NCBI RefSeq assembly: GCF_035083965.1
Contig: NC_089738.1
Coordinates: 9,698,734 to 9,762,733 of the forward strand
Source: Branchiostoma lanceolatum
Lineage: Eukaryota > Chordata > Leptocardii > Amphioxiformes > Branchiostomatidae
Length of the DNA: 64,000 nt
Reading direction: 5' to 3'
The translations under genes were made by a program, and so were the position numbers. The notes below the pieces were generated by a model. That model worked only from the letters and a program-made list of their open reading frames with translations. It was not told the DNA's origin and searched no databases. This document shows, piece by piece, positions 2,836 to 45,433 of this stretch. Each line of letters begins with the position of its first letter. Position 1 is the stretch's first letter.

Positions 2836-4181
2836 TCACTGAGGAAAGTAAGAGCAGAACTCTTCAAACGACACACGACCATCCTCCCCGCCGACGTCAT
2901 TGCAGATCTGCTCCAGTTGTGCGTCTGAAATTTGTTCCACGCCCGCCTTTTTCAGTAGGACCTTCAGCTCGTCTTTCCCCAGGTACCCACTTCCATCCTA
3001 TAATGAGAAAACCCAACAACATTAGGGTTTTTGTGTGTGTTTAAACCTAGCGATATGCAAATCTCGTCCTCTTTCTGACCAAGTGGAGTCCTATCTGAAA
3101 CGTCTAACCGTTTCCAAATTGTATCGAGTTGCTCGAGTATTTTTTTGTTTACTGCGTAATCTTACCTGGATCAAGGTAAAATAGGGGCAGTATGGATTGT
3201 TGACACTCACGTGACTATGTCGTAGGCATTGCCGTCCATACTGGATGTTTAAACTCTGAAGCTAAGTCGCTGAGTCAATGTGAATTTGCGCAATATTATT
3301 ACAACCAATTCATCATGGAATTTAACACCATATCATAGGCTTGTAACATCTTATAAGATCTTTTTGTGTGGCCCAACCCGTGGAATGGCCTAGACTTTAG
3401 AAATGGTACATACTGCTTAATGCTTTCTCTGCATTTTATGGAAGTTAAACAAAGACATCACTATCAGCGGACTAGCCCCCTGCTGTAGATATTTGAACAG
3501 AGTTGTGTGGCCCAGGGTCTGTGAATCGGAGATAGGCGCCGCCAAGTGGCGCGGAAGGTCTTAAGCTTTAACTTACCGTATCCATCTCCAGGAAAGCCGC
3601 CCTCAAGGCATCCGTGGGGGGTGGCAGCGACAAAATGAACTCCACAAACTCGTTGAAGTCGAGAGACCCCTTACCGTCCTTGTCAATGCCTTTGAAAAGA
3701 GCCTGCATAAAAAATCCAACATTTCACAACATGATGAGTGATGATATATACAACTATACAAATAAGTGATATGATTTATGAAGACGAAATCCACACGACC
3801 ATCTTCGGAGTAATATAGCCGATAATCAAATGAAGATACAAATAAATATGCATTGAGCTAACCAGCATAATGATATGCCACCCTAACAAACTAGAGTGCC
3901 ACGACCTCATACCTTCGCCAAATGATTTTAACCTTTATGACTGACGTATTAAGAGTGTTTCTCATCAATTATAAATCATACCAGTTGATTGTCTTCTCGA
4001 CTCAAATAACAGAGGTTGTCCAAAGTATGAGCTTACTACTTACGTCTATCATCTTCGGGTCCGGTGGGGTCTTCCCGGATTGAGAAATGGCTTTGCCCAG
4101 CTCGGCCTTGCTGATAGTGCCGTCACCGCTGGTGTCGAAGTTGTCGAAGACTGTCCTCAACTGTTCCTGCAAATCTCCCAT
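2836..4181 (-). CDS. Gene A: calmodulin/troponin C-like EF-hand protein, 141 aa
   Basis: Three coding exons: 4044-4181 (46 codons), 3577-3702 (42) and 2836-2997 (53 plus stop). All have GT/AG borders and phase-0 joins. The protein starts MGDLQEQL. EF1 loop DTSGDGTISKAE, EF2 DKDGKGSLDFNE and EF3 DTDGSGYLGKDE are canonical. EF4 (VGGEDGRVSFEE) has valine and glycine at loop positions 1 and 3 where acidic ligands are expected, so it probably does not bind calcium normally. There is no signal peptide or membrane segment, so a cytosolic calcium sensor or buffer is likely. The chosen ATG lies 15 nt after a strong acceptor (TTTGTCTTGCAG), showing a 5'UTR intron; the likely first exon is at 6261. Its closest relative in the window is gene C, which has the same EF4 lesion. 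The family is certain; the cellular target is unknown. Confidence 0.93.
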
Positions 4182-4686
4182 ATTGTCTGGATTCCCCTGC
4201 AAGACAAAGTATTCAATGTTTAGGTAAGCCCATACTGATTCAGTTTTATGAATGATATACCCGCGTGCATCAATTTTCGTCGGTTTCCAAGGAAAAAAAG
4301 TTTCATCCGTATTGTTAATCATACAAACTTTTTTTAATTCGCACGCTCACATCAGTCTTGGGGTTTCCAGGTAATGTCATCCGTATATAATCGAATCAAG
4401 ATTACCTAAATGCACTTCGTGTTTCTTTGTATCATATTTCTATGACACCCACGTGCGGATCGATTTTCATCTTTTTCTTGAATATAGAAAATGTTTCAAC
4501 CATACTGTTAATCATACAATTACAAAGTAGCTGCAAAATGAGGAAGTAAATGCCGTAAATTTTTCCAGAAAGATATCGGAAAACGGATGATTCTTTGTGT
4601 CATTTCTACTTGTTGCATGAATATCCGTTTGTAGCGTATTCCTGCCACACATTTTCAAACAGTCCCTAGCCCTGTTTATAGCTATT

Positions 4687-5035
4687 GTGGGGTCGTGTGG
4701 CGCAACGGCAGAGCGTTCGACTCAGAACCAAGAGGTCCCGAGTTCGAATCCTGTCATGTCACCGATCTTGTGCCCTTGGGAAAGGCACTTTACACGACTT
4801 TCTTCACTTCACCCAGGTGTAAATGGGTACCTGACTTCGGTTGGGGAAGGTCGTATTGAGGTCACCTTGTGGCGCCGAACGGCAGCCGCCCAGACCCTTG
4901 CGACAGTTCCACAAAACGCAAGTGTGGATAAGATATTGTGTATTGTGTGTAACCTGTAATACCCTGCATCAATTCAGCGCTAATAGGCTGCTATTGCGGG
5001 TAATTTCTGACCAATAAAAACCATTATTATTATTG
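4687..5035 (+). mobile_element. tRNA-derived SINE, copy 1
   Basis: The 5' part resembles a tRNA, with an A-box-like GTGGCGCAACGG and a B box GTTCGAATC spaced as in polymerase III promoters, but no proper acceptor stem. A tRNA-unrelated body follows (CCCTTGGGAAAGGCACTTTA, then CCAGGTGTAAATGGGTACCTG), and it ends in an ATT-rich tail. The body recurs at 30500, 37993, 42172 and 61487. It lies in the 5'UTR intron of gene A. The small open frame inside it is accidental. Confidence 0.85.
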
Positions 5036-5609
5036 ACCCTTCAATGCTGTCACTGTAAGATCGTAAATGATGAAACGTGTAATTTCATTGAGAGTATATT
5101 AGTAATAAGTAGTAAAATCTCAACAATACATACATATCATCAACAATTACTAGCATGTCCTAATATGGGAAGAATGTATTGGTTGTATGAGTCACAAATA
5201 TCATAGATCATATCTTATCAATTCTGATGTGCAAAAGACGCAGACAACTCGCCAGCGCAGCGCACGAGTGCAGTCACTGACCGCAGTATGCCTTAAAGCG
5301 TAAAGGCGGTAGACTTAGAGTAATTTAATGATGCACGCTTCTGCCGATTCTAATGGTTTCACCGCCTAAGGGCCGGGAGCACTGTACAACCTTACAGTAA
5401 AATCGCAAACAGTGTGGAATGACTGGCCAATTTAAGAATAATTCTGGCTGGGCAACATCAGAAGAATTACGATGTTCTGACACGAGGAGAGTGGGGGGGG
5501 GGGAGAGGTATTCCTAAAAATTCAACAATATGCTTATCATCCAAACTAACCGGCAGACAATCTGCAATTATACTGTTGCATTTTACGGTGCAAGCCGTAT
5601 TACAAGCGA

Positions 5610-6415
5610 TTAAAAGTTGTTATCACAATCGTGTTAGACAATTTTGTACTGTGAATGGAATTAAATGAACGCTCCCTTGTGCTGGGCGTGGCAAATTTGA
5701 CTGGTTAAACCGAGGTAGCCATCTTTTGGGACGTTGCCAAGATTGACTCACTTTTTAAGCTAAGATTTTTTAATGGCCACACAATGACCTATATTTCCCT
5801 GTTTCAAATTCACTTGGACTAGAAATGGTGGTTAAGCGAAGACAACTATCTTTTTTGAGACAGGTTTACAACCAAATAAGCTAGAAAGGTTTTAAAATAT
5901 ACCAATGGAAATTTGACCTCCACCTACTTATGACTTATCCACATGAAAACGGGAAGATCACCCTACACACTATTCGTAGCTCGCGCGCGGAAGAAAGACT
6001 GGCGTTTTGTCTTGTATGTTGCTAACACAGTTCTTATAGTTCTTATAAATCCGTTTCAATTCAACCTATCAGTCTAAAAAGTGGATCCACAACCAATGAA
6101 TAAGGACAAGCACACAATTCACAAGGTCCACCGCGCTGAGACAAAATGTCTCAAAGAACTTCGTCAGTCCACTAACTTCGCCGCCACTTCGATTCACTAG
6201 AGCATCCAACATGTCCTTATATGAAAAGCAAAGTGTTTTGGGAGCATTTAGTGCACTTACCGTCTGTTTTTGTGGAGCTAAGTTGTGACGACCTGTCTGC
6301 CACACGATGCAGTCTTAAGATAACTGGCAAAACCAGTTCCAGATGATACTTAAAGTGACCCTCATTTGCGAGCAAATGTCACATGATTCCTCTGTTAGTC
6401 ATCGGCACACTTAAA
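5610..6415. repeat. Segmental duplication, copy 2 (gene A upstream region)
   Basis: Partner of 1-1030 with the same order of conserved blocks. It covers the noncoding first exon and the presumed promoter of gene A. Conservation is patchy, with blocks of 15-25 identical bases separated by diverged sequence. That fits an old duplication with some constraint, although chance survival cannot be excluded. Confidence 0.85.
6261..6345 (-). promoter_or_regulatory. Candidate noncoding first exon and promoter of gene A
   Basis: On the minus strand, ACAGACG is followed by the donor GTAAGTG. The next acceptor on this strand that fits is the one at 4197-4200, 15 nt before the start of gene A, giving a 5'UTR intron of about 2.06 kb. 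The exon-donor context is conserved in the duplicated copy at 871. No clear TATA box was found. The upstream boundary is approximate. Confidence 0.5.
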
Positions 6416-6419
6416 ACCC

Positions 6420-7659: not shown

Positions 7660-7704
7660 CTAAGAAGTAAATAAAGAAAAAGATACACATTTTCCAAGAC
7701 GTAC

Positions 7705-8073
7705 CGTTTTGTTCCCATCTCCTCCTTGTTCACTTGGAAGATGCGTTTCACAAAACTCCATAAACTCGGAGAAATTTATGGTTCCAGTGTTGTCCTTGTC
7801 TAACACGTTCATGGCTTCCTATGAAAGAGAAAAAAAATCTCTTTTTTTACCCTCTGTTTCTACAACAACAAGGGTACAAGATTATGGAGCTATACAGCAA
7901 ATCAACACCAATGCTATATTCTTATATTTTGTCAAATGATAATTTCCTACCTCAATCTTATCGTCAGAAAGATTGTGCCCCATCTCCTTGAAAGTAGCCT
8001 TGAGTTCATCTTTGGTTATCTGCAGTTCTTCACTTCCGCCAAGTATGTTAGACAGCTGGTCACTAGCCGCCAT
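7705..8073 (-). CDS. Gene B: truncated EF-hand protein (EF1-EF2 only)
   Basis: Exon 1 at 7951-8073 (41 codons, start MAASDQLSNI) joins in phase 0 to exon 2 at 7705-7818 (38 codons). Exon 1 matches exon 1 of C (shared KDELKA, MGH, SDD/SDE and the exon end), but its loop GGSEELQITKDE has lost most EF1 ligands. EF2 (DKDNTGTINFSE) is canonical. Exon 2 ends ...GGDGNKT before GTACGT and lacks the EF3 entry helix seen in every other copy. No EF3-EF4 exon was found downstream. If GTACGT is not used, the frame runs on 14 codons to TAG at 7660-7662, giving about 93 residues. An acceptor (GGCTTAG) lies 9 nt before the ATG, as in the other genes. It could be a two-EF-hand protein, a decaying pseudogene, or a gene whose last exon I missed. 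Confidence 0.65.
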
Positions 8074-8084
8074 AGTATTCAGCT

Positions 8085-9247: not shown

Positions 9248-9253
9248 TTTATT
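9248..9253 (-). terminator. Candidate polyadenylation signal of gene C
   Basis: TTTATT (AATAAA on the minus strand) in a TTTATTGTTC context, about 1.1 kb past the stop of gene C. If it is used, the large palindrome at 9540-10371 lies within the 3'UTR and the transcript would carry a very long hairpin. Confidence 0.35.
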
Positions 9254-9539
9254 GTTCATACAGTACATGTATGTTACAAAATCGAGGTGTTACTGTGAGT
9301 TTTGTGTTTGTTCTCCATCTGAATCGTATTTAATACAGTCGATTAAAAGCATCATTTTACTGTATCATTTTACTGCAGTATCAGATCAGCAGACTTGATA
9401 TATTTCGTGTCAGAATGAAATCATTTTAATCACGTTCATCAGACATCAGTCTAGTCTTACCAAGAAGCCATTTCCTTCGTGTGCCGTGTATTTGCACAGC
9501 CTCTCTAATGTCTGATGATCAAGGCTATATATCGGGACA

Positions 9540-10371
9540 GGCTTTTTAGCGAATGCCCACAAACGCCCACTCTGGCGAAGTCCGCGCTGCACGAATCTAA
9601 TTTTTTTTGCTCGGAATATGTTCAGGTTGTGCTCCCATTAATTAATCCTGAGTTTCAAGTCAATCCATTGATCCGAAGTTAAATAAAGCGAACTTGAAGA
9701 TTCTTACCTGGCTTTTTAGCGAATGCCCAGCAAAAAAAGGCTTTTTAGCGAATGCCCACTATATCAGCCAAAATATCGGCCATCGTGACACGGGCGCTAA
9801 ATCTAACACCATAAACATGTTCAACAAGTTGTCCCCTGAATGTGTACTTAGTTTCCGTGCTGTACATGCCTGTAAAGTCACTTTATTTTACGAAATACAC
9901 GGCGCAGCCCGCGGCGCGTATACGGGGTGGAGGCCGCTGGTAACCTGTCCCAAATATGCAAATGAGCCGCCATATTGGATTTTTACGTCCGGGGTCGTGG
10001 ATTCCCACGCCATGTATTTCGTAAAATAAAGTGACTTTACAGGCGTGTAAAGCACGGAAACTGGGTACACATTCAGGGGACAACTTGTTGAACATGTTTA
10101 TGGTGTTAGATTTAGCGCCCGTGTCACGATGGCCGATATTTTGGCTGATATAGTGGGCATTCGCTAAAAAGCCTTCTTTGCTGGGCATTCGCTAAAAAGC
10201 CAGGTAAGAATCTTCACGTTCGCTTTATTCAACTTCGGATCGATGGATTGACTTGAAACTCAGGATTAATTAATGGGAGCACAACCTGAACATATTTCGA
10301 GCAAAAAAAATTAGATTCGTGCAGCGCGGACTTCGCCAGAGTGGGCGTTTGTGGGCATTCGCTAAAAAGCC
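9540..10371. mobile_element. Large foldback element: about 360-bp inverted arms, 115-bp loop
   Basis: 9540-9898 and 10014-10371 are near-perfect inverted repeats. Each arm carries the 20-mer GGCTTTTTAGCGAATGCCCA three times (9540, 9710 and 9739; on the other strand at 10154, 10182 and 10352), so the terminal motif is also repeated inside the arms. The loop (9899-10013) is GC-rich. GCTATATATC flanks both sides (about 9524 and 10377) and may be a target duplication, although it is partly self-complementary. Open frames in the arms mirror one another and are not genes. The right end is only about 22 bp from the stop codon of gene C. Confidence 0.9.
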
Positions 10372-10392
10372 GATGCGCTATATATCCTTGAC

Positions 10393-13008
10393 TCACTGAG
10401 GCGGCTGCATCATGGATACGAACTCCTCGAAGCTGATACGACCGTCCTCTCCTCCTAGCTTAGCTGCCACCTTCTGCAGCATGGGCTCCGAGATCTTGGT
10501 GCCGGTTCTCTTGAAAATCTCTCGTAGCTCGTCGACGCCGATGTAGCCACTCCCATCCTGCGTGGAAAGAAATGGGACCTTCAACTTAAAATCATCATTG
10601 AAACTTATCATTGAAAGGGCTTTACGACCATTTATCAACAGAGACGGAGGGCGCCATACACGTTCTGCAACTTATGAACCACTGATCACCGAGTCAAGTG
10701 TCCTATTTACATACAGTGACGTCACAGAAGTAGTGGATTGCTCATTCCTTTGAAAAAACTGGAATTGATCAGTCGAAAATTTGGGTAAGTTCACTTTTCT
10801 TGTATGAGTTAGAAAATTAGTTCAACTTTGATCCAGAAATCCCTTAAAGTTTTAGATGAGAACATTACAGTATTTGAAATATGTTATGAACTGTTTTCAA
10901 TAATATGCCACTTTCTTGAATGTGAATGTCTAAATGCATTCAATGACCAGAAATGTTACATTCTACCATACAACCATACGGTAAGTTGTTTCTGTACAAG
11001 GCGCAAGGCCATTTAACATCGGTCTGTATCTATGATTTGTGGTCAAATGATGCTTAAATTCTGGGTTCCCGTCTGTATACATTTATTTGTGAGTTGCGGT
11101 CTACTGATGCTTTTAAATGCCATTAACTGCTAAGTTTAACTTGAAATGTTTACTAGGTTGCTCTTTCAGCAAAAAAAAAAATCTCCTATACCGTGTCCAA
11201 CTCTTGGAACGCCTGGCGGAACCCAGCGCCGTTGTCTGGAGGGGGCTGCATCTGACAGAACTCCATGAACTCTGGGAAGTTAAGGAATCCCGACTGATCC
11301 TTGTCCAGTTCTTCGAACGCCATCTGGAGGGGCAACGATGACGAAAAATATAATAATGATATGATATCTATAGCAACAAATGTTATTGACTCTAGAATAA
11401 AGTTATGATATTTGGACTTTGATATTTAGATTATGATTTTTGTAATATATCATGTATGCCAATGATGTATATAGTGTGTGATGTGTGATGTATGATGTAT
11501 ACAATGTGTTTTGTACATTTGTATGCTAATTTCAGTTGTTGTAACAGTTGATGTCTCTAGTGTATGGGAGGGTAACTTGTAAAAGTGCTTAGGCATCTGT
11601 TTTGCCCTCCCTTTCACATTGTGATGAACTCCAATAAAGAAATAAAGAAATTAATTGGTATTATTGCAGTCGAATCCTTCTTGTAAGGCCACAGCAAGTA
11701 ATTTTTATGGATGACATCAGCGCGCTCATTAATTTTCGCCTGATTTCGAAATAAAAAACAAGAAATTTCATTGCCCTCCGACGGTGGTCAACATGTCAAA
11801 AATTGGCAAATATGTCGTAAACGTTGACAGTCTAAGGTGTTTCATTGCATATGAGTACCCAGTGTAGTTCCTGCCCATGATGGTATGACAAGCTGTTTTC
11901 TGCGTTTGTTCTAGTTAATTGAGCTGTATACACATCTTCAAGAACAGTTTAATGTTGACAGTCTAAGGTGTTTCATTGCATATGAATACCCAGTGTAGTT
12001 CCTGCCCATGATGGTATAATAACAAGCTGTTTTCTGCATTTGTTCTAGCAAGGACATTATATAGATAATGGGGGGGGGGGTCTAGTTAATTGAGCTGTAT
12101 ACACAAGGTGTTTCATCGCATATGAATTCCCAGTGTACTTGCTTCAGATGATGGTACAACAAGCTCTTTTCTGCATTTGTTGTAGTTAGTCTATTGAGAT
12201 GTATACATGTACATATCTACAAGGACATGTTTACATTAAATCAAGGCGGTTTTATATCATATATGAAACCTCATTGGTTGAATACAGGAATAAAAGACCT
12301 GTTGGTCATGATATCATATTTCGTCGCCTCAATTCTTGTTTAACAAGACTTATGATCTCAAAATTTGAAAATATAGGAATCTTGTTTTTTTTGGCCTGCC
12401 TTGTTTTTATTTCGCCCTATCTCATTAATTTTGGAGTCTGCGGAGGATGTCATCCATAAAATTTACTTGCTGTGGCCTAAACAACAACAACCAATAGTAA
12501 GATAATGTGTTTAACTCAGGAGTTTATTTTCCAAACTGGACGTTTTGCATCTCAATGAATCATACGATTTAGATTACTTTATCTGTGTCCAGAAATACCT
12601 AAGGAGGGGGAGTTATGATGTACGTTCTAAGAAAGCTAAATAAGACCCTCAATTGATGTTTCAATCTTGCTGGCGGCGCTGATATAAGTTGACTCAAGTT
12701 GAGTGAGTCGTCATCAATATATATTTGTTCATTTCTGTTTGCTTAAAGTAAACTTTAAACAACATCAGCGATAAGTTCAGTTTAATATTCAGAAGGATAA
12801 AGAACAGCTATTGTGGAAGAAGGTTTTTTTATTGTGGAATATGACAATATGCATATTCATAAGTGGGTTTACTTACGTCTATGACCTCGTCGCTAGGATG
12901 ATGCCCCATTTGTGCCATGGCTGCTTTTAGCTCGTCCTTACCGATCTTCTTGTCTCCACTCGTGTCAAACTGGTCAAACACAGCCTTATATTTCTGTAGT
13001 TCCTCCAT
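10393..13008 (-). CDS. Gene C: calmodulin/troponin C-like EF-hand protein, 142 aa
   Basis: Three coding exons: 12877-13008 (44 codons, start MEELQKYKAV), 11192-11323 (44) and 10393-10557 (54 plus stop), with phase-0 joins and GTAAGT and GTATAG donors. EF1 loop DTSGDKKIGKDE has lysine at position 6 in place of the near-invariant glycine. EF2 DKDQSGFLNFPE and EF3 DTDGSGYIGVDE are canonical. EF4 LGGEDGRISFEE has lost ligands 1 and 3, as in gene A. Only the two central hands are therefore fully standard. The C-terminus is VSMMQPPQ. An acceptor (CTTTACGCAG) 18 nt before the ATG marks a 5'UTR intron; the likely first exon is at 13757. Intron 1 holds the element at 11686-12478. Probably a cytosolic calcium-binding protein; its partner is unknown. 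Confidence 0.93.
11686..12478. mobile_element. Nonautonomous terminal-inverted-repeat element, 793 bp
   Basis: The left end AAGGCCACAGCAAGTAA and the right end TTACTTGCTGTGGCCTTA-like sequence are inverted. The match extends inward through TTTTATGGATGACATC and past TTAATTTTCGCC, giving arms of roughly 80 bp with small gaps. No transposase frame. The centre consists largely of the minisatellite at 11821-12205. It lies wholly inside intron 1 of gene C. Confidence 0.82.
11821..12205. repeat. Three-copy minisatellite, about 130-150 bp unit
   Basis: The unit contains AAGGTGTTTCATTGCATATG, then CCCAGTGTAGTTCCTGCC, ATGATGGTA, CAAGCTGTTTTCTGC and TTAATTGAGCTGTATACAC. Copies run from about 11821, 11951 and 12105. 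The second is longer by a segment containing a run of ten G. Internal repeats like this are common in nonautonomous DNA elements. Confidence 0.85.
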
Positions 13009-15884: not shown

Positions 15885-18800
15885 ATGGCCGAACACCAAT
15901 TTTCTGACGAGGATCTCTCGAAGATCAGAGTGGTGTTTGACGGTTTCGATGTTGACGGAAAAGGAACCATCAACGAGATGGAACTACAGGCCGCCCTCAC
16001 CGCCTTGGACCCCAACACTACACCGGAGTTTGCAGAAGTAGGTTGACCGACATTTTTTGTGACTTCTCATGTGGACAGTTTTGACCGAACATTTCCTAAT
16101 GTATATATCTCTTACCAGGCCCCGGGGATGGCTGTGAAAACAGTAGAAATTGGCCTAATAGAGTGAATAGTATGCCAAGGGAGTTGGCTACGGAGAGAGG
16201 CGGGTCCAATATGCCATCCACGGTAGACTGTACCTATACACTGTAGACTGTACCTATAGCAGACTAACTCCTCTTTCATGTTTTTCTGTCTATTTGGCCA
16301 GTTTCTACTCTTTCCAGCCATCTCTGGAGCCTGGTAGAGGCAATACATCTCTCTGATCTTTTGACAAACAGCATGTAACAGTGGGGTTCAAGGACTTCAA
16401 ACGCCTCCAACTGACCAGTCTGACCGGTCTAGACCTTTTAGCCTCGTGGTTAAGTGGCCTGTGGACTGGCGGGCCCGGGTTCGAGCCCGGGGAGCCAGGA
16501 GTCTGTTTCTACTCGCCTCTTTGGTTTCAATCATCTACAAAATGGGCAAATTAAAATCTAAGTACATACATTTCTTATGGGAGAGAGAAAGATATCAGGA
16601 GAATTTCATATGCTGCTCTCAGAGTGCTGATCTTAAAGAATGCCTACAAAAGCTTCTCGTGTTACACAAAGAGGTTTTTGTTTCTTTACGCTGAATTAAG
16701 AAAACAAACAGAGGCGCGGAGATAAGAAAATGCTCGTATTTATTCAAAGATCTATGGCCTCTTCGTAAGCTTAATCTTATTAGCTTTAATGATTTGTAGG
16801 AACAGAATGAAAATATACATGTATATATACACAACATTTGTTAGCACTGTATATTAGATGACAACATATATCAGTTCTCCAATATACAATGACATATTCC
16901 AGGGACGCCACTACTGATATATATCATATGTAAGAAATTGAAGTGTATATATATGTACAATTTCAATCCTCCTAAAAGCTAGCCACAATTCAAAGATAAA
17001 AGATAGATAGTTATTCTAACTAACTTCTGACTGACCGCAGGCCGTGATGAAGAATCTGGACGATGACCATGACGGCGAGCTGTCGTTCGAAGAGTTTCTG
17101 GACATGGTCAAGGCGGTCAAGACCAAGCCGAAGGAGGACTCTCTCCTGAACGTCTTTAAGAAACACGACGCGGTAAGTCATACCCTGAGCATGTCATGAA
17201 GAAATAGATATCTATATATGACATAGTTTGAGGACTTGTGGTTGAGTTTTAGAGTTCAGTGTTGACTAATACTAATGTTGATGTCTAGCCTAATAAATAG
17301 ATACAGTTCACGACTTATTATCTTCGCCGAGTACTTGTACTCGGAGAAGATTATGTTTTCGGTTGAAAAATCTGTTGGGTGGGTCTGAATGTATGTCAGG
17401 AGCATAACTCAAGAAAGCTTCAATGAATCTTTATGATTTTCGGTAGGTGTGTAGTGGTTGTGCAAAGGAAGGTCAAGTTCAAAAATGGTTCACCTTGCGT
17501 TTTTCAAAAGTACTGCAGCGGACTTTGCATTTTTTTGTGTTTGTATGTAGGCAAAAAAAGTGACGGAAACGTTGATGGATCTTCATGATTGTTTGCAGGT
17601 GTGTAGATGTTGTGAAAACGGAGGTCAAGTTCAAAAATGGTTCCCCTTGTATTTTCCGTCGGTACTGCAGCGGGCTTTGTGTGGATGTGTATTTGTATGT
17701 CGCCAGCATAACTCAAGAAGCTGTTGATGGATCTGTATGATATCTAGTGGATGGGTAGGGTTTACAGAAAGGAAGGTCAAGTTCGATAATGGGCCTTCTA
17801 GCGGGCACCAAAGGTACTGCAACAGAGCTTCAAAATTTGGAGGCATATTTTCTGAAAGTGCTATGGTCATGATTTTTGTGTGGTAGATAGTTCATGCCAC
17901 AGAAAGTAAGTTCTGTAAATTTGGGCCCCCCTAGCGGCTTGTCAAGAACTGCAGTGGGTGTTTTTGTTTTGACATTCGGACATGAATAACTTGAGAAGGG
18001 GTCGACAGATCGTCGTGATATTTGGTATTTACAGAGCTCAGATGGTGCTTTACATAATCAATGACTAATTATGCAAATCAGGAGCTAATTTGCATAATTA
18101 GAAAGGAAAGTTTGTTAACCCACTGCATTTCATAATCGGACATGGGACTGTCAGGTCATGTAACCAGATGGCCTTGCATAAACGTACATGTAGGTCAAAT
18201 AAATAAACTATCCTCCAAGCAGAGGTGTGGGTCCGGCTGGTTTTTAACGCGTTCAGTTTAGGCATTTTTGTTCACCACGATTGGCGACATAATGAAAAGG
18301 GGACAAAATAGAAAGCCTGACAAAAACACCTAAAAACACGTCAAAAACCAGCCAGACCCACTCCTCTGCTTGGAGAGTACACTGTACCCACTGCCAGGTG
18401 CGGAAAAGTCACATGTACATGTACTATGTCTTTCAAAATGTGTATGGAATAAAGATTTATTTTATTCATATATATTGACTGTACCATTTCATCATCACTT
18501 TCAACTTACAACACTGCAATATCGAACCTTTGTGGCCCATATAATATCAACATACTCATATTTTTTTCATGACCAGTTATAACATATACATTTGTATCAG
18601 CACACTCTACACATATACTAGTCCCGTACCACCAAATGATTTTTAACCCCATCTAGACTGGACTCATTCGCCCCATCATAACTTCCAAATGGTATGGTGC
18701 ATGATCAAATTTGCAGGGGGTGATAAGCACGTAAATATCAATCACTCTCCATAATAAGCCTTGATTATTTGGCGAAGATAATGTGTTCGTGGAACTCTAG

Positions 18801-20083
18801 TTTACTATATTTCGTGTTTCATTTTATGTAAAATGAGGCAAAACTACAAATCGTCATTACTCATGATTACTAAGACAGAATTGTATACAATTAGCAGGGT
18901 TGTAAATTAAGAATGAGTTGCAAATCTATAATCTCCAATGGTAACAGGTTAAAGATTATAAACCTCGAACTCCTAGCTCTGAGGCATCATCGTAATCTTT
19001 CAATTTAAAAAAAAAATTATTTAGTAAATAGAGTGTTTTTTTAGCAGATTATACAATTCTAAATGGGTCCATAAAGATAGCACACATTTTTGGCACAGTT
19101 TTAGAACCACCTACTTCCATACTTGAATATGTAATTATATGGATACGATATTGGGTTACCTTTACTGGCTTGTTTGGTTTACCGAAAAACGGAAGTCTAA
19201 CATTTATCAAAATTCACATTCATCTACGTTCTGTTCTCTATGTTGTACCGTAGAGGGGGCGCCGTATACTTATTATCTCCATGAGAAATTGAAATATTGT
19301 TTTTGGTGTGTCTGTGCGTGTGTCTGAATATTTATGTTTCCGAATTTTTGCAGTCAGCATAGCTCAAGAACCTCTTGACGGATTATGATGATATTTGGTA
19401 TGTGAGTAGGTGTTGGTAGGACAAAGGTCATGGTCGATTTTGGGTCCTCTGATATGTGCCCTTGGTACTGCAGCAGAATGTCCGTTTTTGAACTTTTGAC
19501 CTGGACGTGCTATGGTCTTTATTCTTTGGTGGCAGGTAGCTTGTGATGTAAGGAAAAAGTGGAGTAGTTTTGGGCCCCATAGCAGCTTGCAGGGGCGTTT
19601 TTGTTAAAAATTTCCCAGGAGAAAAACTGAACAAGGGGACGACGGATTTCTTTAATATGCAGGTAGCTTAGACAGAGACGGATATTTCACAGAGATATGA
19701 GGTCTCCGAACTCTTATCTTTGTTCTGTTCTGTCTTCAATTGGCATACCTGATAGTAGAAGTTCTTGGCTTTTATACAATAATATATCGTAGCTTTGTTT
19801 TGTCTTGTTTAGTCTACCGTTGAGTTGAATCGGTCATATTCACCTTTGTTCTGTTTGGTTAGGTGTACCGTCAAGTAGGAACGGTATATTCATCTTGCTT
19901 GAAATGCTTTGTTTTGTATAGAGTGGGAACGGCACACTGAACGCCTCAGAGATCAAGGGGGCGATGAGGGAGACGGGCGTGAAGCTGTCAGACCGGGCCA
20001 TAGATTACCTGGTCAACAAGGCGGACACTTCGGGCGACGGAGAGGTCAACTATGAAGAGTTCTGCAAGTTGTTGGGCCGCTAG
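15885..20083 (+). CDS. Gene D: calmodulin-like EF-hand protein, 148 aa
   Basis: Three coding exons: 15885-16037 (51 codons, start MAEHQFSDEDLSKI), 17041-17172 (44) and 19922-20083 (53 plus stop), all phase 0. The four loops DVDGKGTINEME, DDDHDGELSFEE, DASGNGTLNASE and DTSGDGEVNYEE are all complete, so four calcium sites are expected. The linker after EF2 (VKAVKTKPKEDSLL) matches E and F (VKQVKTVPR.D.LL), placing D in their subgroup; D has the most divergent EF3. The C-terminus is FCKLLGR. Exon 3 follows a TTTTGTATAG acceptor. The 2.75-kb intron 2 is filled with repeats (17317-18783 and 19330-19640), and intron 1 holds a foldback element and a tRNA-like fragment. Probably a cytosolic calcium sensor; its target is unknown. 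Confidence 0.92.
16112..16337. repeat. Foldback element with GGCTGGAAA..TAGAAATTGGCC arms
   Basis: The left end TTACCAGGCCCCGGGGATGG and the right end (inverted CTACCAGGCTCCAGAGATGG) match. Inside, AGTAGAAATTGGCC pairs with GGCCAGTTTCTACT. It has a relative at 20123-20296 and half a copy at 28540-28585. It lies in intron 1 of gene D. Confidence 0.78.
16441..16503 (+). repeat. tRNA-like fragment, probably SINE-derived
   Basis: It contains an A-box-like GCCTCGTGGTTAAGTGGCCT and a strong B box within GGGCCCGGGTTCGAGCCCGG, with only about 10 bases between the arms where a D-stem remainder and anticodon arm should be. The T arm (CCCGGGTTCGAGCCCGGG) is a perfect stem. There is no acceptor stem, so it is not a functional tRNA. 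It lies in intron 1 of gene D. Confidence 0.55.
17317..18783. mobile_element. Interspersed repeat with CTTCGCC ends, about 1.47 kb
   Basis: It starts ATTATCTTCGCCGAG (with a near-perfect small hairpin GAGTACTTGTACTC) and ends TTGGCGAAGATAATG, inverted relative to the start. The body is built of 120-150-bp modules of the type 'GGTCAAGTTCAAAAATGG ... GTACTGCAGCGG ... GATGGATCT', with two close copies at about 17470-17700 and further diverged ones. Module relatives appear at 19330-19640 and 33540-33910. A CTCTCCAAGCAGA foldback element has inserted at 18209. No transposase frame was seen. It lies in intron 2 of gene D. Confidence 0.65.
18209..18379. repeat. Foldback element, CTCTCCAAGCAGA family
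   Basis: Left end TATCCTCCAAGCAGAGG, right end CCTCTGCTTGGAGAGTA. The arms continue through GTGGGTCYGGCTGGTTTTT and its complement. It is nested in the larger repeat of gene D intron 2. Confidence 0.82.
19330..19640. repeat. Diverged modules of the 17317-18783 repeat family
   Basis: Shares 'CAGCATAGCTCAAGAA', 'GATATTTGGTATGTGAGTAG', 'GGTACTGCAGCAG' and 'TTTTGGGCCCCATAGC' phrases with the copy upstream in the same intron and with 33540-33910. It lacks the CTTCGCC ends. Confidence 0.6.
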
Positions 20084-23911: not shown

Positions 23912-25184
23912 ATGGCAGAGAAGTTTAGCGAGTCGGACCGAGCGGCCATCCAAACTGTGTTCGACAAGTTTGACAAGGACGGAGGGGGCACGATAGACCG
24001 CGAAGAGCTGGGGGACATGCTGGCGGAGCTCGGAGAGAGTCCCACCGAGGATGTCGTTACGGTAAGCCGCTGTGTTTTTGGTGAGACTGCCTGGTTCATG
24101 TGTGACTCCTTGAAACTATGAGTGTGGTAGGCCAAGGTACAAAATGAAGGGTCACGTTCTATAACGGTTAGTCTAGTTAGACATGTGTCAGGATTTGGCA
24201 AAAGTGACTGATATATAACGTGCCCAAACTCTTTGATGAGAAAGCATCGCCAAACTAGGCTCCTTTAACCTTCATTTAGTATTTTCTTAACGTTAATTCT
24301 CAGTTTGGGAAAATTTGCAAAAAGAATGCGAATTACCCTTCGAACTTTGCAATTGAGATAATAGGTTGTTATGGTTACCCTGCTTTCTTCAGCTTAACTT
24401 AATTTGATATCGCTAGAAATTTTAAACGAGATTCAATTTAGCGAATCACATTGTTACGGGTGTGTCAGGAATTTTTATCATTGACGTCATCAGGAATTTT
24501 GTCGCGTGTCAGTTAGATGCACAAAGAAAGAATTATACATATTTTGGTCATTTCTTTTAATGTATGCAAATTTCGTGTCAGTTGCAGGAATAATATATAA
24601 CACAATGGCAAGCCTCTAGCCACAGCTTTTTTTAATTGGTTATTAGAAAACAGATCAATTCAGTCTTATGTATTTTCGCCACCACTGTTTCTATATCATT
24701 TCTGCAGGCTATGATGATGTCGTTGGATAAAGACAAAAGTGGAACAATTGACTTTGACGAGTTCCTGTCCATGGTGAAACAAGTCAAGACCGTCCCTCGT
24801 CAGGACACTCTGTTGGCAGTCTTTCAGGAGTATGATAAGGTAAAACCATGTTCCACATCTAAAGATGTGACTTGAAACATTTTCGGTAATGTAATGAGTC
24901 AGTGTGTCGCCAGAGGGCGCGAATGAGTGGTGCATTTTCCTCGGACGATACGAATGTCGTGCTCGTTATCAGTCCATCCACACACCTTATAGCTGATTTG
25001 TGATTTGTCCAAATAGGACGGCAGCGGAAAGCTGGACGCTGCTGAGATCAAAGAGGCGATGAAGAAAGGCGGATGCAAGATGTCTGACAAGGCCGTCAGC
25101 TATCTCATCAAACGTGCTGACATAGACGGGGATGGGCTGATCAACTATCAAGAGTTCGCCAGCATCATGAAACCCGGGATGTGA
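23912..25184 (+). CDS. Gene E: calmodulin-like EF-hand protein, 149 aa
   Basis: Three coding exons: 23912-24061 (50 codons, start MAEKFSESDRAAI), 24708-24839 (44) and 25017-25184 (55 plus stop), phase-0 joins. The loops DKDGGGTIDREE, DKDKSGTIDFDE, DKDGSGKLDAAE and DIDGDGLINYQE are all canonical, so four functional calcium sites are expected. The linker VKQVKTVPRQDTLLAVFQ is nearly the same as in F, so E and F are sister copies facing each other. The third join splits the EF3 loop as DK|DGSG, like D and F. The C-terminus is SIMKPGM. The ATG follows AAGCACACAAG and an acceptor 28 nt upstream. Cytosolic calcium sensor or buffer by family; it is the least altered gene of its subgroup. Confidence 0.94.
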
Positions 25185-26787: not shown

Positions 26788-28669
26788 TTATGACCTTGGG
26801 CGGATCAGCTTGACGAACTCCTCGTAAGTCAGTTTTCCGTCCGCATCCTTGTCGACCTAACTCGGCAGACATCAAAAGGGACATCAATGTATTGAACGTT
26901 ATATACAAATAACCCCCCCCCCACAACTGAAACCTATGCAGCCGATGCATTAGAATAAGGACGTTCACACTTCCGAGTACGCATGAGCGGGGACAGGAAC
27001 TGTGTGTAATATGTCAAAGGTGAAGGCCCCTAACTTGTGAACAGTTCTCGTTTCGACCATTGTCTCAATTTGCATAATAATTTGCATAATAATGTCCATA
27101 CGTGTTTTGTTTATATCTCAGGGGCCTTCACCTTTGACATATTACCCACAATTACTGTTACTGCACATGCCTACTCGGAAGTGTGAACGACCTTATAAAC
27201 TGCAAAACTATCATGATATCATGTATCTATAACATATAGTGTACATCTTGTTAAATATAGGCCTCAAAGACGTGCAGATTATTTGTGACGTACTTTTGTA
27301 TGCAAATTTGATGTTCCCGGATCTGTACCCTTTGAACCCAAGCGCTGACATGTGTGGAAATTTCCGCCGACAATTCTATATATTCCCTGTCAAGCTTAGA
27401 TTACCACTGTGTCTTCTAATTGTCAAAGAAGCTGACTTTCAACAACTTTTTACCCATTGCTGATATCACTCCTGCGACAAGTAACGTGTAAAAAGCGATT
27501 TGGTCAAAGAGCTGAAGAAGACGGAGTGATTCAGTTAGAAAATAGGGTGAGTCCAATTTGTTTGCTTAGGAGAACAGTTTAACCTTTCCATAATGTGATT
27601 TGCGAATTTTCACGCTATTCTGAATATGTTGTTGTTGTTGTTGATTACCTTCTTGATGAGATAGTCGATGGTTCTGTCTGACAGTTCGCACCCTCTGGCC
27701 TTCATGGCTTCCTTCAACTCCTCAGGTCCGAGCTGTCCACTTCCGTCCTGTAATGGACAGAACAATGCAACTATTTGTTGAATGTGTGATTTAAAAGTCG
27801 CATATGCCATTATCCGCATGCAAGTTTATTGGTCTGATGTCTGACTCTTCTCCCATGTTTACCTAGCTAACATAATATGACGTCATGTGTAAACATTTAT
27901 TAATTAGCTTTCACACTTCCGAGTACGCATGCGCGGCGATAGGTACTGTGGGTAATATGTCAAAGGTGAAGGCTCCTTGGCTTGTAAAAAGATCTCGTCT
28001 CGATCATTGTCTTAATTTGCATAACACTGTCAAGACGGGTTTTGTTTACGTCTCAGGGACCTTCACCTTTGTCATATTACCCATAATTTCTGTCGCCGCG
28101 CATGCGTATGAAAGCGCTTATACAAATATTTGTTTTAATGTGTGATTTGTAAGTCGCGTAAATATGCCATTATCCGCATGCAGGTTTATAGGTCTAACGT
28201 TTCCATGTTTAACCAACTTACATGGCGGCTATGACGTCATGAGTAAACATTTAGCTAAAGAGAAATAGAAGGTACCACTTGCAACACTGCTATCTTACCT
28301 TGTCGTATGACTTGAACATTGTGAGAAGAGCATCCTCCCTTGGAACGGTCTTCACCTGCTTTACCATTCCCAGAAACTCCTCAAAGGAAAGGGTGCCATC
28401 ACGGTTTTTGTCCATAGACAACATCAGTGCCTAAATGATTAATATTAACAATCTATAAATTGCATATAAATGACACTTTTCTTTAAAAATAAATACAGCA
28501 CGCACAAGCACTGCTGTGCTTTCGTGGACTAACTTCTCTGGCATTTTATCTGTCTATTTGGCAAATTTGTACTCTTTTCAGCCGCCTCATACAGACACAC
28601 AGACACACATACACACAGACACACACGCACACACACACATACACATACAGACACACACAAACACACACA

Positions 28670-28735
<66 letters not shown>

Positions 28736-28755
28736 TACACACACACACACACGCA

Positions 28756-28788
<33 letters not shown>

Positions 28789-28997
28789 TCTCTCTCTCCC
28801 TCTCTCTCTGTGTCTCTCTCTCGCTCTCATACTATCATCGGGCTCACCGTGACGGTGTCTTCGGAAGGATTCTCTCCCAGCTCCGCCAGGGAAGTCTCCA
28901 GCTCCGTGATGTTGATGGCGCCGCTCCCGTCCGAGTCAAACTTGTTGAACACGCCCTTGATCTTGGCCAGCTCATCGATACTAAACTTGTCCGCCAT
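26788..28997 (-). CDS. Gene F: calmodulin-like EF-hand protein, 149 aa, four exons
   Basis: Exons 28848-28997 (50 codons, start MADKFSIDELAKI), 28299-28430 (44), 27649-27747 (33) and 26788-26856 (22 plus stop), all phase 0. The loops DSDGSGAINITE, DKNRDGTLSFEE, DKDGSGQLGPEE and DKDADGKLTYEE are all complete. The start aligns with MAEKFSESDR of gene E; an in-frame ATG nine codons further up lies before a good acceptor (TTTTCATCAG) and is rejected. F alone has an intron between EF3 and EF4 (26857-27648, donor AAG/GTAATC); its relatives read through this point. That intron holds a foldback element, intron 2 holds another inside a duplicated block, and intron 1 holds a long CA repeat. The C-terminus is KLIRPRS. 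A TATA promoter is proposed at 33340. Confidence 0.92.
26955..27196. repeat. Foldback element, TTCACACTTCCGAGTACGCA family, copy 1
   Basis: The ends ATAAGGACGTTCACACTTCC and inverted ATAAGGTCGTTCACACTTCC match at 19 of 20 positions. Inner arms share AATATGTCAAAGGTGAAGGC. The centre carries TTTGCATAATAATTTGCATA. It lies in the F-specific intron 3. Confidence 0.88.
27766..28262. repeat. Direct duplication of about 140 bp flanking a foldback element
   Basis: 27766-27906 and 28122-28262 are direct repeats. Both contain TTTGTT..AATGTGTGATTT, GCCATTATCCGCATGCA, GGTTTAT/AGTTTAT, CCATGTTTA and ATGACGTCATG(T/A)GTAAACATTTA. The foldback element at 27907-28119 sits exactly between them. All of this is inside intron 2 of F. 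Confidence 0.82.
27907..28119. repeat. Foldback element, TTCACACTTCCGAGTACGCA family, copy 2
   Basis: Left end GCTTTCACACTTCCGAGTAC; the right arm has lost about 8 bp near the tip (GCGCATGCGTATGAAAGC). Inner arms share AATATGTCAAAGGTGAAGG and CATATTACCCA. Closely related to 26955-27196. Confidence 0.85.
28540..28585. repeat. Half copy of the TAGAAATTGGCC foldback family
   Basis: TCTGTCTATTTGGCAAATTTGTACTCTTTTCAGCC matches the right arm of 16112-16337. The left arm is missing and a CA microsatellite begins where the element breaks off. Confidence 0.6.
28589..28829. repeat. CA microsatellite followed by TC tract
   Basis: About 200 bp of mostly (CA)n with interrupting G and T, then about 40 bp of (TC)n. 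It lies in intron 1 of gene F, within 20 bp of the exon 1 donor. Long open frames across it (Cys-Val or His-Thr repeats) are artefacts of the repeat. Confidence 0.97.
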
Positions 28998-34995: not shown

Positions 34996-34997
<2 letters not shown>

Positions 34998-35026
<29 letters not shown>

Positions 35027-36792: not shown

Positions 36793-36794
36793 AG

Positions 36795-36842
<48 letters not shown>
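36793..36842. repeat. TG microsatellite
   Basis: (TG)n of about 50 bp with one interruption. Confidence 0.97.
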
Positions 36843-36843
<1 letters not shown>

Positions 36844-37992: not shown

Positions 37993-38402
37993 GGTAGTCC
38001 TGTAGCCTTATGAGGCCGTCGGGACTGTGGGTTGTTATGCACTGTATCTAGGGCATCCTCTGTGAAAAAAGAAGCCGTCTAAAATGTTTGGACGCCGTCT
38101 AAGAACGTTTTAGTGCGTCGGAGCCCGTCCCAGGCCGTCTGTCCTGTCAGAAACGGCGGCGGATACGTCGCGCGCGTTCAGGCCGTCCTGCCCGTCTGTT
38201 AGTTGGCTTAGCCCTCTCCCTCCACGGCCTTTTAACTCCCCAACAGAAGCCAGGTACCCATTTTTACACCTGGGTGGAGTGAGGAAAGTCGTATAAAGGG
38301 CTTTTCCCAAGGGCACAACATCGGTGGCATATCAGCGGATTCTAACCTACGACCTCTGGGTTCTTGGCCAAACAAACCGTTACTCCAACACGATGCCACA
38401 CA
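37993..38402 (-). mobile_element. tRNA-derived SINE, copy 3, with internal GCCGTC-rich insert
   Basis: The right end carries a tRNA-like part (degenerate B box), then the body (CCCATTTTTACACCTGGGTG and the inverse of CCCTTGGGAAAAGCCC). The far 3' end (TGAGGCCGTCGGGACTGTGGG) lies at 37993-38060. Between body and 3' end there are about 150 bp made of GCCGTCT/GCCGTCC phrases not seen in the other copies. Confidence 0.78.
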
Positions 38403-41067: not shown

Positions 41068-41073
41068 TTTATT
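41068..41073 (-). terminator. Candidate polyadenylation signal of gene G
   Basis: TTTATT (AATAAA on the minus strand), about 890 bp past the stop of gene G. Confidence 0.4.
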
Positions 41074-41962: not shown

Positions 41963-44900
41963 TTAAGCCTTGGGACGGAGGATGTTGATGAATTCCTCGT
42001 AGTTGACCCGGCCATCGCCGTCTTTGTCGGCAGCCTGGATCATCTCATCGATTTCAGCATCAGTCATCCGCTGTCCCATGCTGGCCATGGCTGCCTTCAG
42101 TTCCTGGGGATCAATGTAGCCATTGCCATCCTGTGGGAAAAGGCAAACCAAACTCATGGTCAGTAGGTAGTCTCACAAGGTAGCTAGTCCCATTTCGAGG
42201 CCGTAGGGGCAGTGGGTTGTTATCCACTGTATCTTAAGGGCAAGTCCGGCTTGCCCTAACCCTCTTCTTCTTACACCGCCTTTTTCGCTTCTCTAACCAA
42301 AGTCAAATACCAATTTTTGCACCTTGGTGGAGTGAGGAACTTCGTAAAGTGCATTTCCAAAGAGCACAAGATCAGTGACACGACAGGATTCGAACCCAGG
42401 ACCTCCAGGTTCTGGACCAAAAACCCTGCCGTTACGTCACACGACCCCACTTACTGGCAACACGACCTCACAATCGTTTTTCGAACCTGGGCTTTACATG
42501 TAAGAACATCATGTAGGAGGACAGTTACGAAATACTTTGTCTCGCTGAGTTTAGAGTTCATCGTAGCATAACTCACTATACCGCATAAAAGGCTGGTTGG
42601 CACAGAGTTATGCTGCAATTTTCTGAAGTGCTTTCAACTGAAGTCAAAGGGCTAGACGGATTTCGACCACGCACATGGTATTTTCAAATTCAATATGATA
42701 AGGTCTCATACGGTTGAGTGATCGTAATACGTGGATAAAAAGGTTTTGGAACGAGTGCATACGTGTGTACATTATATTCATTACCCATGGCAATCTTTTA
42801 TGACCATACATTGACTGTACCAGATCACAAACCTGAGAATTTCCCTTCATGAAGTCAAATGAATAACCGTTCTTTTTAAACAGCTGATAATTTTCATATT
42901 TCAAGGAGATCTTGTAGCCAAAGTTGTGCAATGCAATTGACAACGGTCGAATCTTCGCTATCCCTAGCTGAGTAGCCCTAACGCACTTGCCAGTATTTAG
43001 TATGCACACTGTTATCAGTGTAAGGATCGTTCAAAGGCGATCGTTATGGAAAAGAAGTCAAGAGTAGTTCCCCTCGCTACATAGCTCTATCCACCCTTTC
43101 AAAGGTTCTGAAGCCTTTACGTAGCCCTATCACGTTTGTCAGTATTTAGTATGTACAGTGTTATAGCCTAGTAAGGATCTTTCAGAGGCGATCGATAGAT
43201 CAAACAGAAATCAAGAGTTCCCTCGCTAGCTCTACCCTCGCCTCACTATGAGGGTCTAGATGGGGATGGGGTGGGCAGCGCTTTACGAATGTGAATTCGA
43301 AAGAACCACCTACGTATTTCGCTTAAACCAAGCAAGGCAATCTACGCAAAATTTGGTCGTCTCGCTACGAATAGACCGCTTGCCACTTACGGCGGCCATT
43401 TTGTATTTCCCAGGGTCAGCTCGGGGTCATGGACCAAAGTGAGACTTAGGTTGTGTGAGCCTAGAATAAGCCTCTATTGCAATATAGGTATGCCATCTTT
43501 GGTGGTATATTTTGGTGCTATTGGCAAGAGGTCTATTACGTGAATTAGACGGCTTTCCCTACCAATGGCGTGAAATATGCTGCCTACACCATACGGAAAA
43601 GAGGCATGCAGGCCCTCACCCTATGAAAGGTTCTGAAGGCTTCACGAATTGTCTCCTCGTATAGGTAGTGGCCCTATCATGCTTGTCAGTATTTAGTATG
43701 CACATTGATATAGTAAGGATCGTTCAAAAGCAATCGATATGAAACAGAAGTCAAGAGATCTACTCACCCTATCAAAGGTTCTGAAGGCTTCACGAAGCGT
43801 CTCCTCGGCCGGCTGGTTGGACATGACCTGGTACACCATCCCCAGGAACTCGTCGAAGTTCAGAGTGCCACTGTCATCCTTATCAGCCGCCTTGATCATG
43901 GCCTGGCGGAATGGAGAGGAGACGGATTAGCATTTAAATTAAACCGCGGGAAGACATAGGTCAGCTAACCTGTGAAGGGCACCGGTGTCGCGCAAAATTT
44001 CTGCTCCACTAGGTTTTTGCTCCGAGGGGTAGTGGGTGGGGTTTGGGTTAGGGCCATAGGGTCAGGGTGAGGTTACGGTTAGCAGATCAACAACTTAATT
44101 CCAAATCCGCTTCGACTTTTGGTTGAAAATTGCCACCCCTCAGGTGTGACACAATTCTCAGGTATACGGGAGTCTGGAAACTTCCAAGTAATGTTGGGGC
44201 AAATATTTGGCAGGGGCAAAAATTTGCATCGACACCGGATCTCCTGCAATTGCGTTAGCTTGTAAATCGGACGAAAATATATGTGGTAAGAGGACGAGCA
44301 GACATGGTAATCCAATGGTCAGACATCACCAAGAAAAGTAAATAAAATGTATTTAGTTACTACAAATTCTGAACGGAAGTTTTATCTAACTTTCTTCTAA
44401 AGACTTCATCTTTTTAAACATAAGATAACTGTTATTGATTTAACATACCAAGGAACAAAGACTAACTTTCTCCGGATAACATTGGTATTAACGTCATATT
44501 TCAACTTCAGTCACATTTTAGACTATATTTGAAGTTTCAAACCACCATTGCTACCAACCAGAAAGATTCAGTTGTCGCATTGAATTTCTCGTATATAAAT
44601 CTATATCAGCTTAGAAGAAAAAATGAAGGGTTTAGATAAAACGACGAAGAATCTCGACCTTACCTATTAATCAATGATAACTGTCGTTACTTTGTATCCT
44701 TTTATCTATAGTTACTTAAGTTGCCACAGCAGATCGATCATATTAAAGCACTGATATTTTATATAATAAAAATTCATCATCTTTACGGCTCCTTGATCGT
44801 TAAGAAGTCTTGAACTCCACCCCGAGGGTAACCGAGCGGTAGAGGATCAATGCTGATGGTATGTCTCTTCTGCTAGTAATTATTTGAATGTCGATGTTGC

Positions 44901-45433
44901 ATATCGAGTTTCGTGTAGGCGTACAGTTCATGGCATGACAAGAGGTTCCAAGGATATAAAGTATAAAAGATAGTAGACAGTACTGTCTTGAATACTAAGG
45001 TTGAAGTAAAAGCTACCGGATTCGTTAAAGAAATTGAAATTTTTTGACATCGGAATTGTTTTATGCTTTTATGCGTGTATGAAAATGGCCAGGTTAATTT
45101 GAATTTACATAATGTAGTTACAGTCATGCGCTTATTACATTACACATATTCAAATTTATAGATGTGACTCTTCCAGTTGAATCAACAAACATGGCGGCTG
45201 TGACGTCACGTGCGCACGCGCAAACACACGTGTGATGTCACATCCGCCATGTGGCGTCAGGTCCGCACACCGAATATACGTACCCGAACCATTTCCTTTG
45301 TGGGAGCCTGTCCGAGCTGCTTAAGTGCCGTTTCCAATTCCTCTGCGTTGATCACGCTGTCCTTGTTCTTATCGAAAGCCTCAAAAACCGCCTTGTACTG
45401 CTTGAGCTGATCCTTGTTGAATCGTCCAGCCAT
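41963..45433 (-). CDS. Gene G: calmodulin-like EF-hand protein, 150 aa
   Basis: Three coding exons: 45284-45433 (50 codons, start MAGRFNKDQLKQYK), 43768-43902 (45) and 41963-42130 (55 plus stop), phase-0 joins, donors GTACGT and GTGAGT. EF1 loop DKNKDSVINAEE has serine where the loop glycine is expected. EF2 DKDDSGTLNFDE, EF3 DRDGNGYIDPQE and EF4 DKDGDGRVNYEE are canonical. The C-terminal half (EIDEMIQAADKDGDGRVNYE) is the most calmodulin-like sequence in the window. Calmodulin itself would have ADQLTEEQ-type residues near the start and would lack this EF1 change, so G is a calmodulin-like paralogue or a troponin C relative. An acceptor (TTATTCTCTAG) lies 12 nt before the ATG; the proposed first exon is at 46575. 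Intron 2 holds a SINE and partial copies of the gene's own exon 2 end. Confidence 0.93.
42172..42450 (-). mobile_element. tRNA-derived SINE, copy 4
   Basis: Complete minus-strand copy: a tRNA-like head with B box (GGGTTCGAATCCTG on the minus strand, about 42388-42401), the shared body (TTGCACCTTGGTGGAGTGAGG) and a 3' end GAGGCCGTAGGGGCAGTGGG. It lies in intron 2 of gene G. Confidence 0.85.
42957..43812 (-). repeat. Tandem partial duplications of gene G exon 2 end and adjoining intron
   Basis: The functional exon tail (43768-43812) and its adjoining intron (43669-43767) recur as an exon-tail remnant at 43617-43660, again at 43094-43125, and as intron copies at 43126-43222 and 42965-43053. Shared intron phrases are TTGTCAGTATTTAGTATG, TAAGGATCGTTCA and AGAAGTCAAGAG. 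The 43617 remnant still encodes EETIREAFRTFHR before GTGAG, with an aspartate-to-histidine change at the start of the EF3 loop. The remnants lack acceptors and are unlikely to be spliced in. Confidence 0.85.
45187..45254. promoter_or_regulatory. CRE-containing imperfect palindrome in gene G intron 1
   Basis: ACATGGCGGCTGTGACGTCA at 45189-45208 pairs with TGATGTCACATCCGCCATGT at the right end. It contains an exact CRE (TGACGTCA, 45201-45208), two ACGTG motifs, and CGCGCACG-type centre sequence. It lies 30 bp from the exon 1 donor of gene G. Similar ACATGGCGGCTATGACGTCA occurs at 28219 in gene F, so it may be a dispersed element rather than a dedicated control site. Confidence 0.55.

What the first reader, a model, noticed from the sequence alone, without database searches (positions are those of the whole stretch)
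2836..45433. Seven-gene tandem cluster of diverging four-EF-hand proteins
Seven EF-hand genes with one shared exon plan lie in 43 kb, in both orientations, with no other genes between them. Ligand loss is graded: D, E and F keep four sites, G has an altered EF1, A an altered EF4, C altered EF1 and EF4, B keeps one. This looks like a lineage-specific expansion in which copies are moving from four-site sensors to proteins with fewer sites. Seen: exons, loops, orientation. Known: the EF-hand ligand rules and the calmodulin/troponin C plan. Inferred: expansion history and functional split.
Basis: partly seen in the sequence, partly recalled or inferred. Interest (0 to 1): 0.72.

Follow-up and report, generated by a model that had tools for sequence, protein, structure and literature searches.

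The report
Ancient calmodulin-like gene cluster
Six neighbouring animal genes and a seventh, incomplete one encode calmodulin-like calcium-binding proteins that arose by old local duplications, so this looks like a fairly ordinary old tandem gene family rather than a series of genes caught losing calcium sites one by one.

Summary
The cluster is real. Six complete gene models (A, C-G; 141-150 aa) and a two-exon remnant or short gene (B) lie at 2836-45433, with GT-AG phase-0 introns. The exon plan is shared by A, C, D, E and G; F has one extra intron and B has no third exon. No other gene was found between them, by limited scans.

Of six comparison proteins, calmodulin is the best match for all seven, at 27-46% identity. 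Against calmodulin, troponin C, CALML5, centrin and myosin ELC the six complete proteins form one side of a branch, 100/99.

By the PROSITE loop rule the counts are E 4, F 4, C 3, D 3, G 3, A 2, B 1. A and C share one EF4 deletion, so loss follows the tree. Synonymous sites are saturated and introns do not align: the duplications are old, not in progress.

Calmodulin's acidic rim is mostly gone (0-4 of 11), as also in calcineurin B (1 of 11). Best reading: calmodulin-type sensors with other targets. A Branchiostoma calmodulin family is already in print (cited in PMC4987107). Lancelet origin was not tested.

The parts
2836..4181 (-). Gene A, 3 exons (4181-4044, 3702-3577, 2997-2836), 141 aa. 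EF1 and EF3 pass the PROSITE rule; EF2 has Lys at position 5; EF4 has an 11-residue loop lacking its first ligands.
7705..8073 (-). Gene B, exon 1 (8073-7951) and exon 2 (7818-7705) only, 79 codons. EF1 degenerate, EF2 intact, no third exon found and no AATAAA/ATTAAA within 1.5 kb of exon 2. Either a decayed gene or a short two-EF protein.
10393..13008 (-). Gene C, 3 exons (13008-12877, 11323-11192, 10557-10393), 142 aa. EF1-EF3 pass; EF4 has the same 11-residue loop as A.
15885..20083 (+). Gene D, 3 exons (15885-16037, 17041-17172, 19922-20083), 148 aa. EF2-EF4 pass; EF1 has Lys at position 5.
23912..25184 (+). Gene E, 3 exons (23912-24061, 24708-24839, 25017-25184), 149 aa. Four passing EF loops.
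26788..28997 (-). Gene F, 4 exons (28997-28848, 28430-28299, 27747-27649, 26856-26788), 149 aa. Four passing EF loops and an extra phase-0 intron just before the EF4 loop.
41963..45433 (-). Gene G, 3 exons (45433-45284, 43902-43768, 42130-41963), 150 aa. EF2-EF4 pass; EF1 is changed only at Gly6 (Ser). Closest of the seven to calmodulin (46%).

Best explanation
An old tandem cluster of calmodulin-like genes. A calmodulin-type four-EF-hand gene, with one intron between EF1 and EF2 and one inside the EF3 loop, was duplicated locally in both orientations. It split into an A/B/C subfamily, a D/E/F subfamily and G, and the copies were then kept under purifying selection. Shown: gene models, loop sequences, two supported subfamilies, saturated synonymous divergence, loss of most of the acidic rim. 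Inferred: A and C-G are intracellular Ca2+ sensors that open a hydrophobic cleft on calcium binding like calmodulin but recognise other targets. E and F would have four usable sites; C, D and G three; A two. A and C would have a C-lobe with EF3 alone. B is a decayed gene or a one-site short protein.
For: Gene models with GT-AG phase-0 introns and start contexts. Pfam EF-hand pair in all seven. Calmodulin is the best of six comparison proteins for all seven, and the 60 best-listed PDB matches of G, E and C are calmodulins, calmodulin fusions or a calmodulin-related protein (only these three were searched). Subfamilies A/B/C 98/99 and D/E/F 96/96; the six complete proteins against 6 comparison proteins 100/99. 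Old and constrained: 4-fold-site difference 0.47-0.94 over 15 pairs; NG86 dS 1.6-5.6 in 8 pairs and beyond estimation in 7; dN 0.35-0.82; third-position change exceeds second-position change in 15 of 15. Rim: 0-4 of 11 acidic in the six, against 9-10 in two TnC, centrin-2 and CaVP, and 5 in CALML5.
Against: No expression, binding or target data. Source organism not verified. Calcineurin B breaks up the window group in one tree, and calcineurin B, a true sensor subunit, has also lost the rim (1 of 11), so rim loss does not by itself define function. Hydrophobic pocket positions (24-26 of 26) do not discriminate: all controls score 23-26. G's position relative to the two subfamilies is unresolved (70/57 to 73/68). 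Pocket and rim residue lists and the PROSITE pattern are recalled.
Confidence: 0.7

Rival explanations
1. Buffers rather than sensors: the proteins bind Ca2+ without a target, like parvalbumin or sarcoplasmic Ca-binding proteins.
For: Loss of the acidic rim, loss of single sites, net charge -8.5 to -15.2 against -24.3 for calmodulin.
Against: Two-lobed 141-150 aa plan with the calmodulin exon order of EF hands and hydrophobic cleft positions filled, although the cleft positions do not discriminate.
Confidence: 0.15
2. One reading: a recent expansion whose copies are caught at successive stages of site loss.
For: Counts do range from 4 to 1; B looks decayed.
Against: Synonymous sites saturated and introns unalignable in the six complete genes; the EF4 deletion is shared by A and C; D, G and A changes are single and in different hands.
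Confidence: 0.08
3. Members of a known specialised family (troponin C, calcium vector protein, essential light chain or a CALML5-type protein) rather than a separate group.
For: Shared EF-hand architecture; D and F have CALML5 as second-best match.
Against: Clades of D/E/F with TnC (p 0.003), A/C with MYL6 (p 0.003) and D/E/F with CALML5 (p 0.044) rejected; CaVP sits outside the window group in the one tree that held it, on a long branch.
Confidence: 0.07

Closest known systems
Calmodulin (vertebrate CaM, PDB sequence as in 4il1 and 10nk)
   Same: Four EF-hands in two lobes, 149 aa against 141-150 aa, no extra domains; best match of all seven among six comparison proteins; an intron within the EF3 loop after its second residue, phase 0, which by my recall of the human CALM exon sizes is also a CALM intron position.
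   Different: Only 27-46% identity; acidic rim 0-4 of 11; one or more loops altered in A, B, C, D and G; start codon lies in the same exon as EF1, whereas in the abalone CaM genes the first exon holds only the start codon (PMC6171432, passages); G is excluded from the CaM clade.
Branchiostoma calmodulin multigene family (Karabinos and Bhattacharya 2000, J Mol Evol 51:141)
   Same: A calmodulin and calmodulin-like gene family said to have evolved apart from that of vertebrates, as cited in PMC4987107 (passages).
   Different: Paper not held and no sequences compared; whether these seven include those genes is unknown.
Troponin C
   Same: Four EF-hand plan, second- to fifth-best match.
   Different: No troponin C N-terminal helix or linker length (sequence); D/E/F with TnC rejected, p 0.003.
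Amphioxus calcium vector protein (CaVP; PDB 1j7q, 1c7v)
   Same: Four EF-hands, some non-functional; from amphioxus (recalled).
   Different: CaVP lost its N-lobe sites (recalled), the window proteins lose others; CaVP falls outside the window group.

Membership tests
Calmodulin-like EF-hand family (broad sense) | Two EF-hand pairs in about 150 aa, no other domain | tested here: met
   Six of seven models: 141-150 aa, EF-hand pair matched in two stretches. Not met by B (79 codons, one stretch).
Calmodulin-like EF-hand family (broad sense) | Calmodulin is nearer than other EF-hand families | tested here: met
   Best of 6 comparison proteins for 7 of 7; PDB search for 3 of 7.
Canonical calmodulin | Near-identity to calmodulin and a place inside the CaM clade | tested here: not met
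   27-46% identity; G with CaM rejected, p 0.00014.
Canonical calmodulin | Four canonical Ca2+ loops | tested here: not met
   Met only by E and F (2 of 7).
Canonical calmodulin | Acidic rim around the target-binding cleft | tested here: not met
   0-4 of 11 positions; residue list recalled.
Canonical calmodulin | Ca2+-dependent binding of CaM-target peptides | not testable with these tools
   Needs protein.
Troponin C | Groups with troponin C in a tree | tested here: not met
   D/E/F with TnC rejected, p 0.003; A, C and G fall outside TnC but were not tested singly.
Essential myosin light chain | A/C group with an ELC (shared loss of EF4) | tested here: not met
   A/C with MYL6 rejected, p 0.003.
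Calcium vector protein | Groups with CaVP in a tree | tested here: inconclusive
   CaVP outside the window group, but on a long branch (1.87) and not tested singly.
Branchiostoma calmodulin-like genes of Karabinos and Bhattacharya | Sequence identity to the published genes | not testable with these tools
   Paper not held; no lancelet collection on hand.
Lineage-specific (lancelet) expansion | Copies nearer to each other than to any protein of other lineages | tested here: inconclusive
   Holds against 6 comparison proteins, mostly vertebrate; broken by calcineurin B; no tunicate, hemichordate or other lancelet sequence available.

The most novel reading that the evidence does not exclude
The cluster is a separate, long-maintained branch of calmodulin-like sensors that lost calmodulin's acidic target rim and took on its own set of targets, with lobes specialised differently in the A/B/C and D/E/F subfamilies: a local, independent counterpart of the sensor diversification seen in vertebrates.
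Probability: 0.35. Interest if true: 0.5.

Novelty: new member of a known kind. Interest (0 to 1): 0.3.

Why it matters
If the cluster is lancelet and its targets differ from calmodulin's, it gives a compact set of old paralogues, with natural changes in single Ca2+ loops, to test how sensor and target specificity diverge after tandem duplication. It also warns against reading ligand counts among paralogues as stages of an ongoing process without a tree. A calmodulin family in Branchiostoma is already in print, so the main fact is not a surprise.

Tried and rejected
B third exon: profile search and codon scan both flagged 6150-6218 on the minus strand (E 6.3 over the window; codon score 7.1). 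Smith-Waterman with A exon 3 gave 35 against a null 95th percentile of 34 and maximum of 39; with C exon 3 the same stretch gave 26, below the null median of 29. It lies in a repeat shared with A's 3' flank (683-920 and 6078-6315, 76%) whose other copy is frame-shifted. Rejected as an exon, though not excluded.

Gene-unit duplication of A and B from that repeat: rejected, because the repeat (76-89% identical) is far younger than the A-B protein split (29%).

Hydrophobic pocket conservation as evidence for a sensor: dropped, because every control scores the same.

Essential-light-chain origin of A/C, TnC or CALML5 origin of D/E/F: tested and rejected (the last only at p 0.044).

Intron and flank comparison: rows set aside were three B-C rows, one of 681 bases that is the same DNA (the two stretches overlap by coordinates) and two of 22 and 25 bases; what remained were A-D 40 bases and F-G 55 bases.

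Whole-genome context: none held. tRNA and Rfam scans: none found. Ten literature searches found no paper that I recognised as describing this cluster; most subscription papers are not held. Viral contigs: one calmodulin relative at 37% (L001), not pursued.

Full report
Observation. Spliced models with GT-AG phase-0 introns give A 141, C 142, D 148, E 149, F 149 and G 150 aa; B gives 79 codons from two exons. Intron 1 lies between EF1 and EF2, and intron 2 inside the EF3 loop after its second residue. F has one more intron, just before EF4. The profiles were built from these exons, so their scores are partly circular; but 19 of 21 exons score 56-102 bits, F exon 4 scores 36 and B exon 1, left out of its profile, scores 16, against null maxima of 8.9, 11.1 and 6.9 bits in 10 Markov windows. 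Pfam finds EF-hand pairs in all seven.

Other genes. A codon-usage scan trained on the same exons found 20 of 21 exons in its top 20 segments; the next two (38116-38196 and 61181-61246, 11.6 and 11.4) are no better than the shuffle maximum of 11.7 in five shuffles. Some true exons are also weak when their own gene is left out of training (B exon 2, 7.3; F exon 2, 10.3; B exon 1, 11.7; E exon 2, 11.8), so a short or unusual exon could be missed. Ten of the 49 ORFs of 90 aa or more, one trimmed, had no Pfam match at the curated cut-off. No tRNA and no Rfam match was found. The left end of the cluster is only 2.8 kb from the window edge, so it may continue beyond it.

Gene B. Exon 1 has a degenerate EF1; exon 2 has an intact EF2, then lacks the helix before EF3, and ends at a donor in the usual place. 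A third exon was not found. The one weak candidate lies in a repeat. If the donor is not used, the frame stops at 7663. B is decayed or short; RNA would decide.

Calcium loops. With the PROSITE pattern (recalled), the passing loops are A EF1 and EF3; B EF2; C EF1-EF3; D EF2-EF4; E all; F all; G EF2-EF4. A and C share an 11-residue EF4 loop, which is best read as one inherited loss.

Relationships. Identity is highest within E-F (56%), A-C (50%) and D-F (50%); identity to calmodulin is 27-46%. In three trees, A with C (and B) and D with E and F are supported. The six against CaM, CALML5, TnC, centrin and, MYL6 stand apart at 100/99. Adding calcineurin B and CaVP, both on long branches, puts calcineurin B among the window proteins, at 92/96 for the joint group; holding the six together costs 0.54 log units, p 0.33. 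G's place relative to the two subfamilies is unresolved.

Age and constraint. In 15 of 15 pairs third codon positions differ more than second. NG86 dS is 1.6-5.6 in eight pairs and beyond estimation in seven. The four-fold-site difference is 0.47-0.94, on 14-33 sites per pair. Introns and 1.5-kb flanks share only two short matches between different genes, of 40 and 55 bases, apart from overlapping or 22-25-base B-C rows. The duplications of the complete genes are thus old on the neutral scale. For B against C, second positions differ least (0.24 against 0.65 at third), which suggests past or present constraint.

How it may work. The calmodulin plan is retained. The hydrophobic cleft positions are filled, but so they are in every control (23-26 of 26), so they say nothing on function. 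The acidic rim that calmodulin uses against basic targets is reduced to 0-4 of 11, while two troponin Cs, centrin-2 and CaVP keep 9-10, CALML5 5 and calcineurin B 1. Net charge is -8.5 to -15.2 against -24.3 for calmodulin. I infer Ca2+ sensors with targets other than calmodulin's. This is inference; no partner or expression is known.

What is known. [quoted passage not shown] that paper is not held. PMC6171432 (passages) counts two CaM genes in amphioxus and says that the first exon of abalone CaM genes holds only the start codon, unlike here. PMC5888912 (passages) treats lancelet troponin C and muscle genes. PMC4793263 (passages) reports a very abundant amphioxus EF-hand transcript with about 30% identity to counterparts elsewhere; whether it belongs to this cluster is unknown. 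PMC6010424 (passages) shows that old tandem duplicates are ordinary in lancelets.

Verdict. A real, old, locally duplicated calmodulin-like family; new as a described locus as far as the searches reach, but of a known kind. Interest is moderate to low.

Noticed in passing
9516-10395: Near-perfect palindrome (about 390-base arms, 95% alike) with a repeated GGCTTTTTAGCGAATGCCC motif, foldback or MITE-like, reaching the stop codon end of gene C.
   Followed up: partly
190-1042 and 5673-6406: Same-strand pair of partly matching blocks, 76-89% identical, beyond the 3' ends of A and B; younger than the A-B split.
   Followed up: partly
26857-27648: Intron found only in F, phase 0, just before EF4; it holds an inverted repeat (26955-27196) with a related copy in F intron 2 (27910-28093).
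   Followed up: no
28591-28788: Long AC-rich dinucleotide repeat inside F intron 1.
   Followed up: no
4687-4849, 30571-30676, 38213-38398, 42288-42450, 61483-61656: Interspersed repeat family, 78-84% alike, in both orientations.
   Followed up: no
17390-17845: Three tandem copies of a 152-base unit in D intron 2, 66-73% identical to the first.
   Followed up: no
47886-48615: Direct repeat of about 368 bases, 85% alike, right of the cluster.
   Followed up: no
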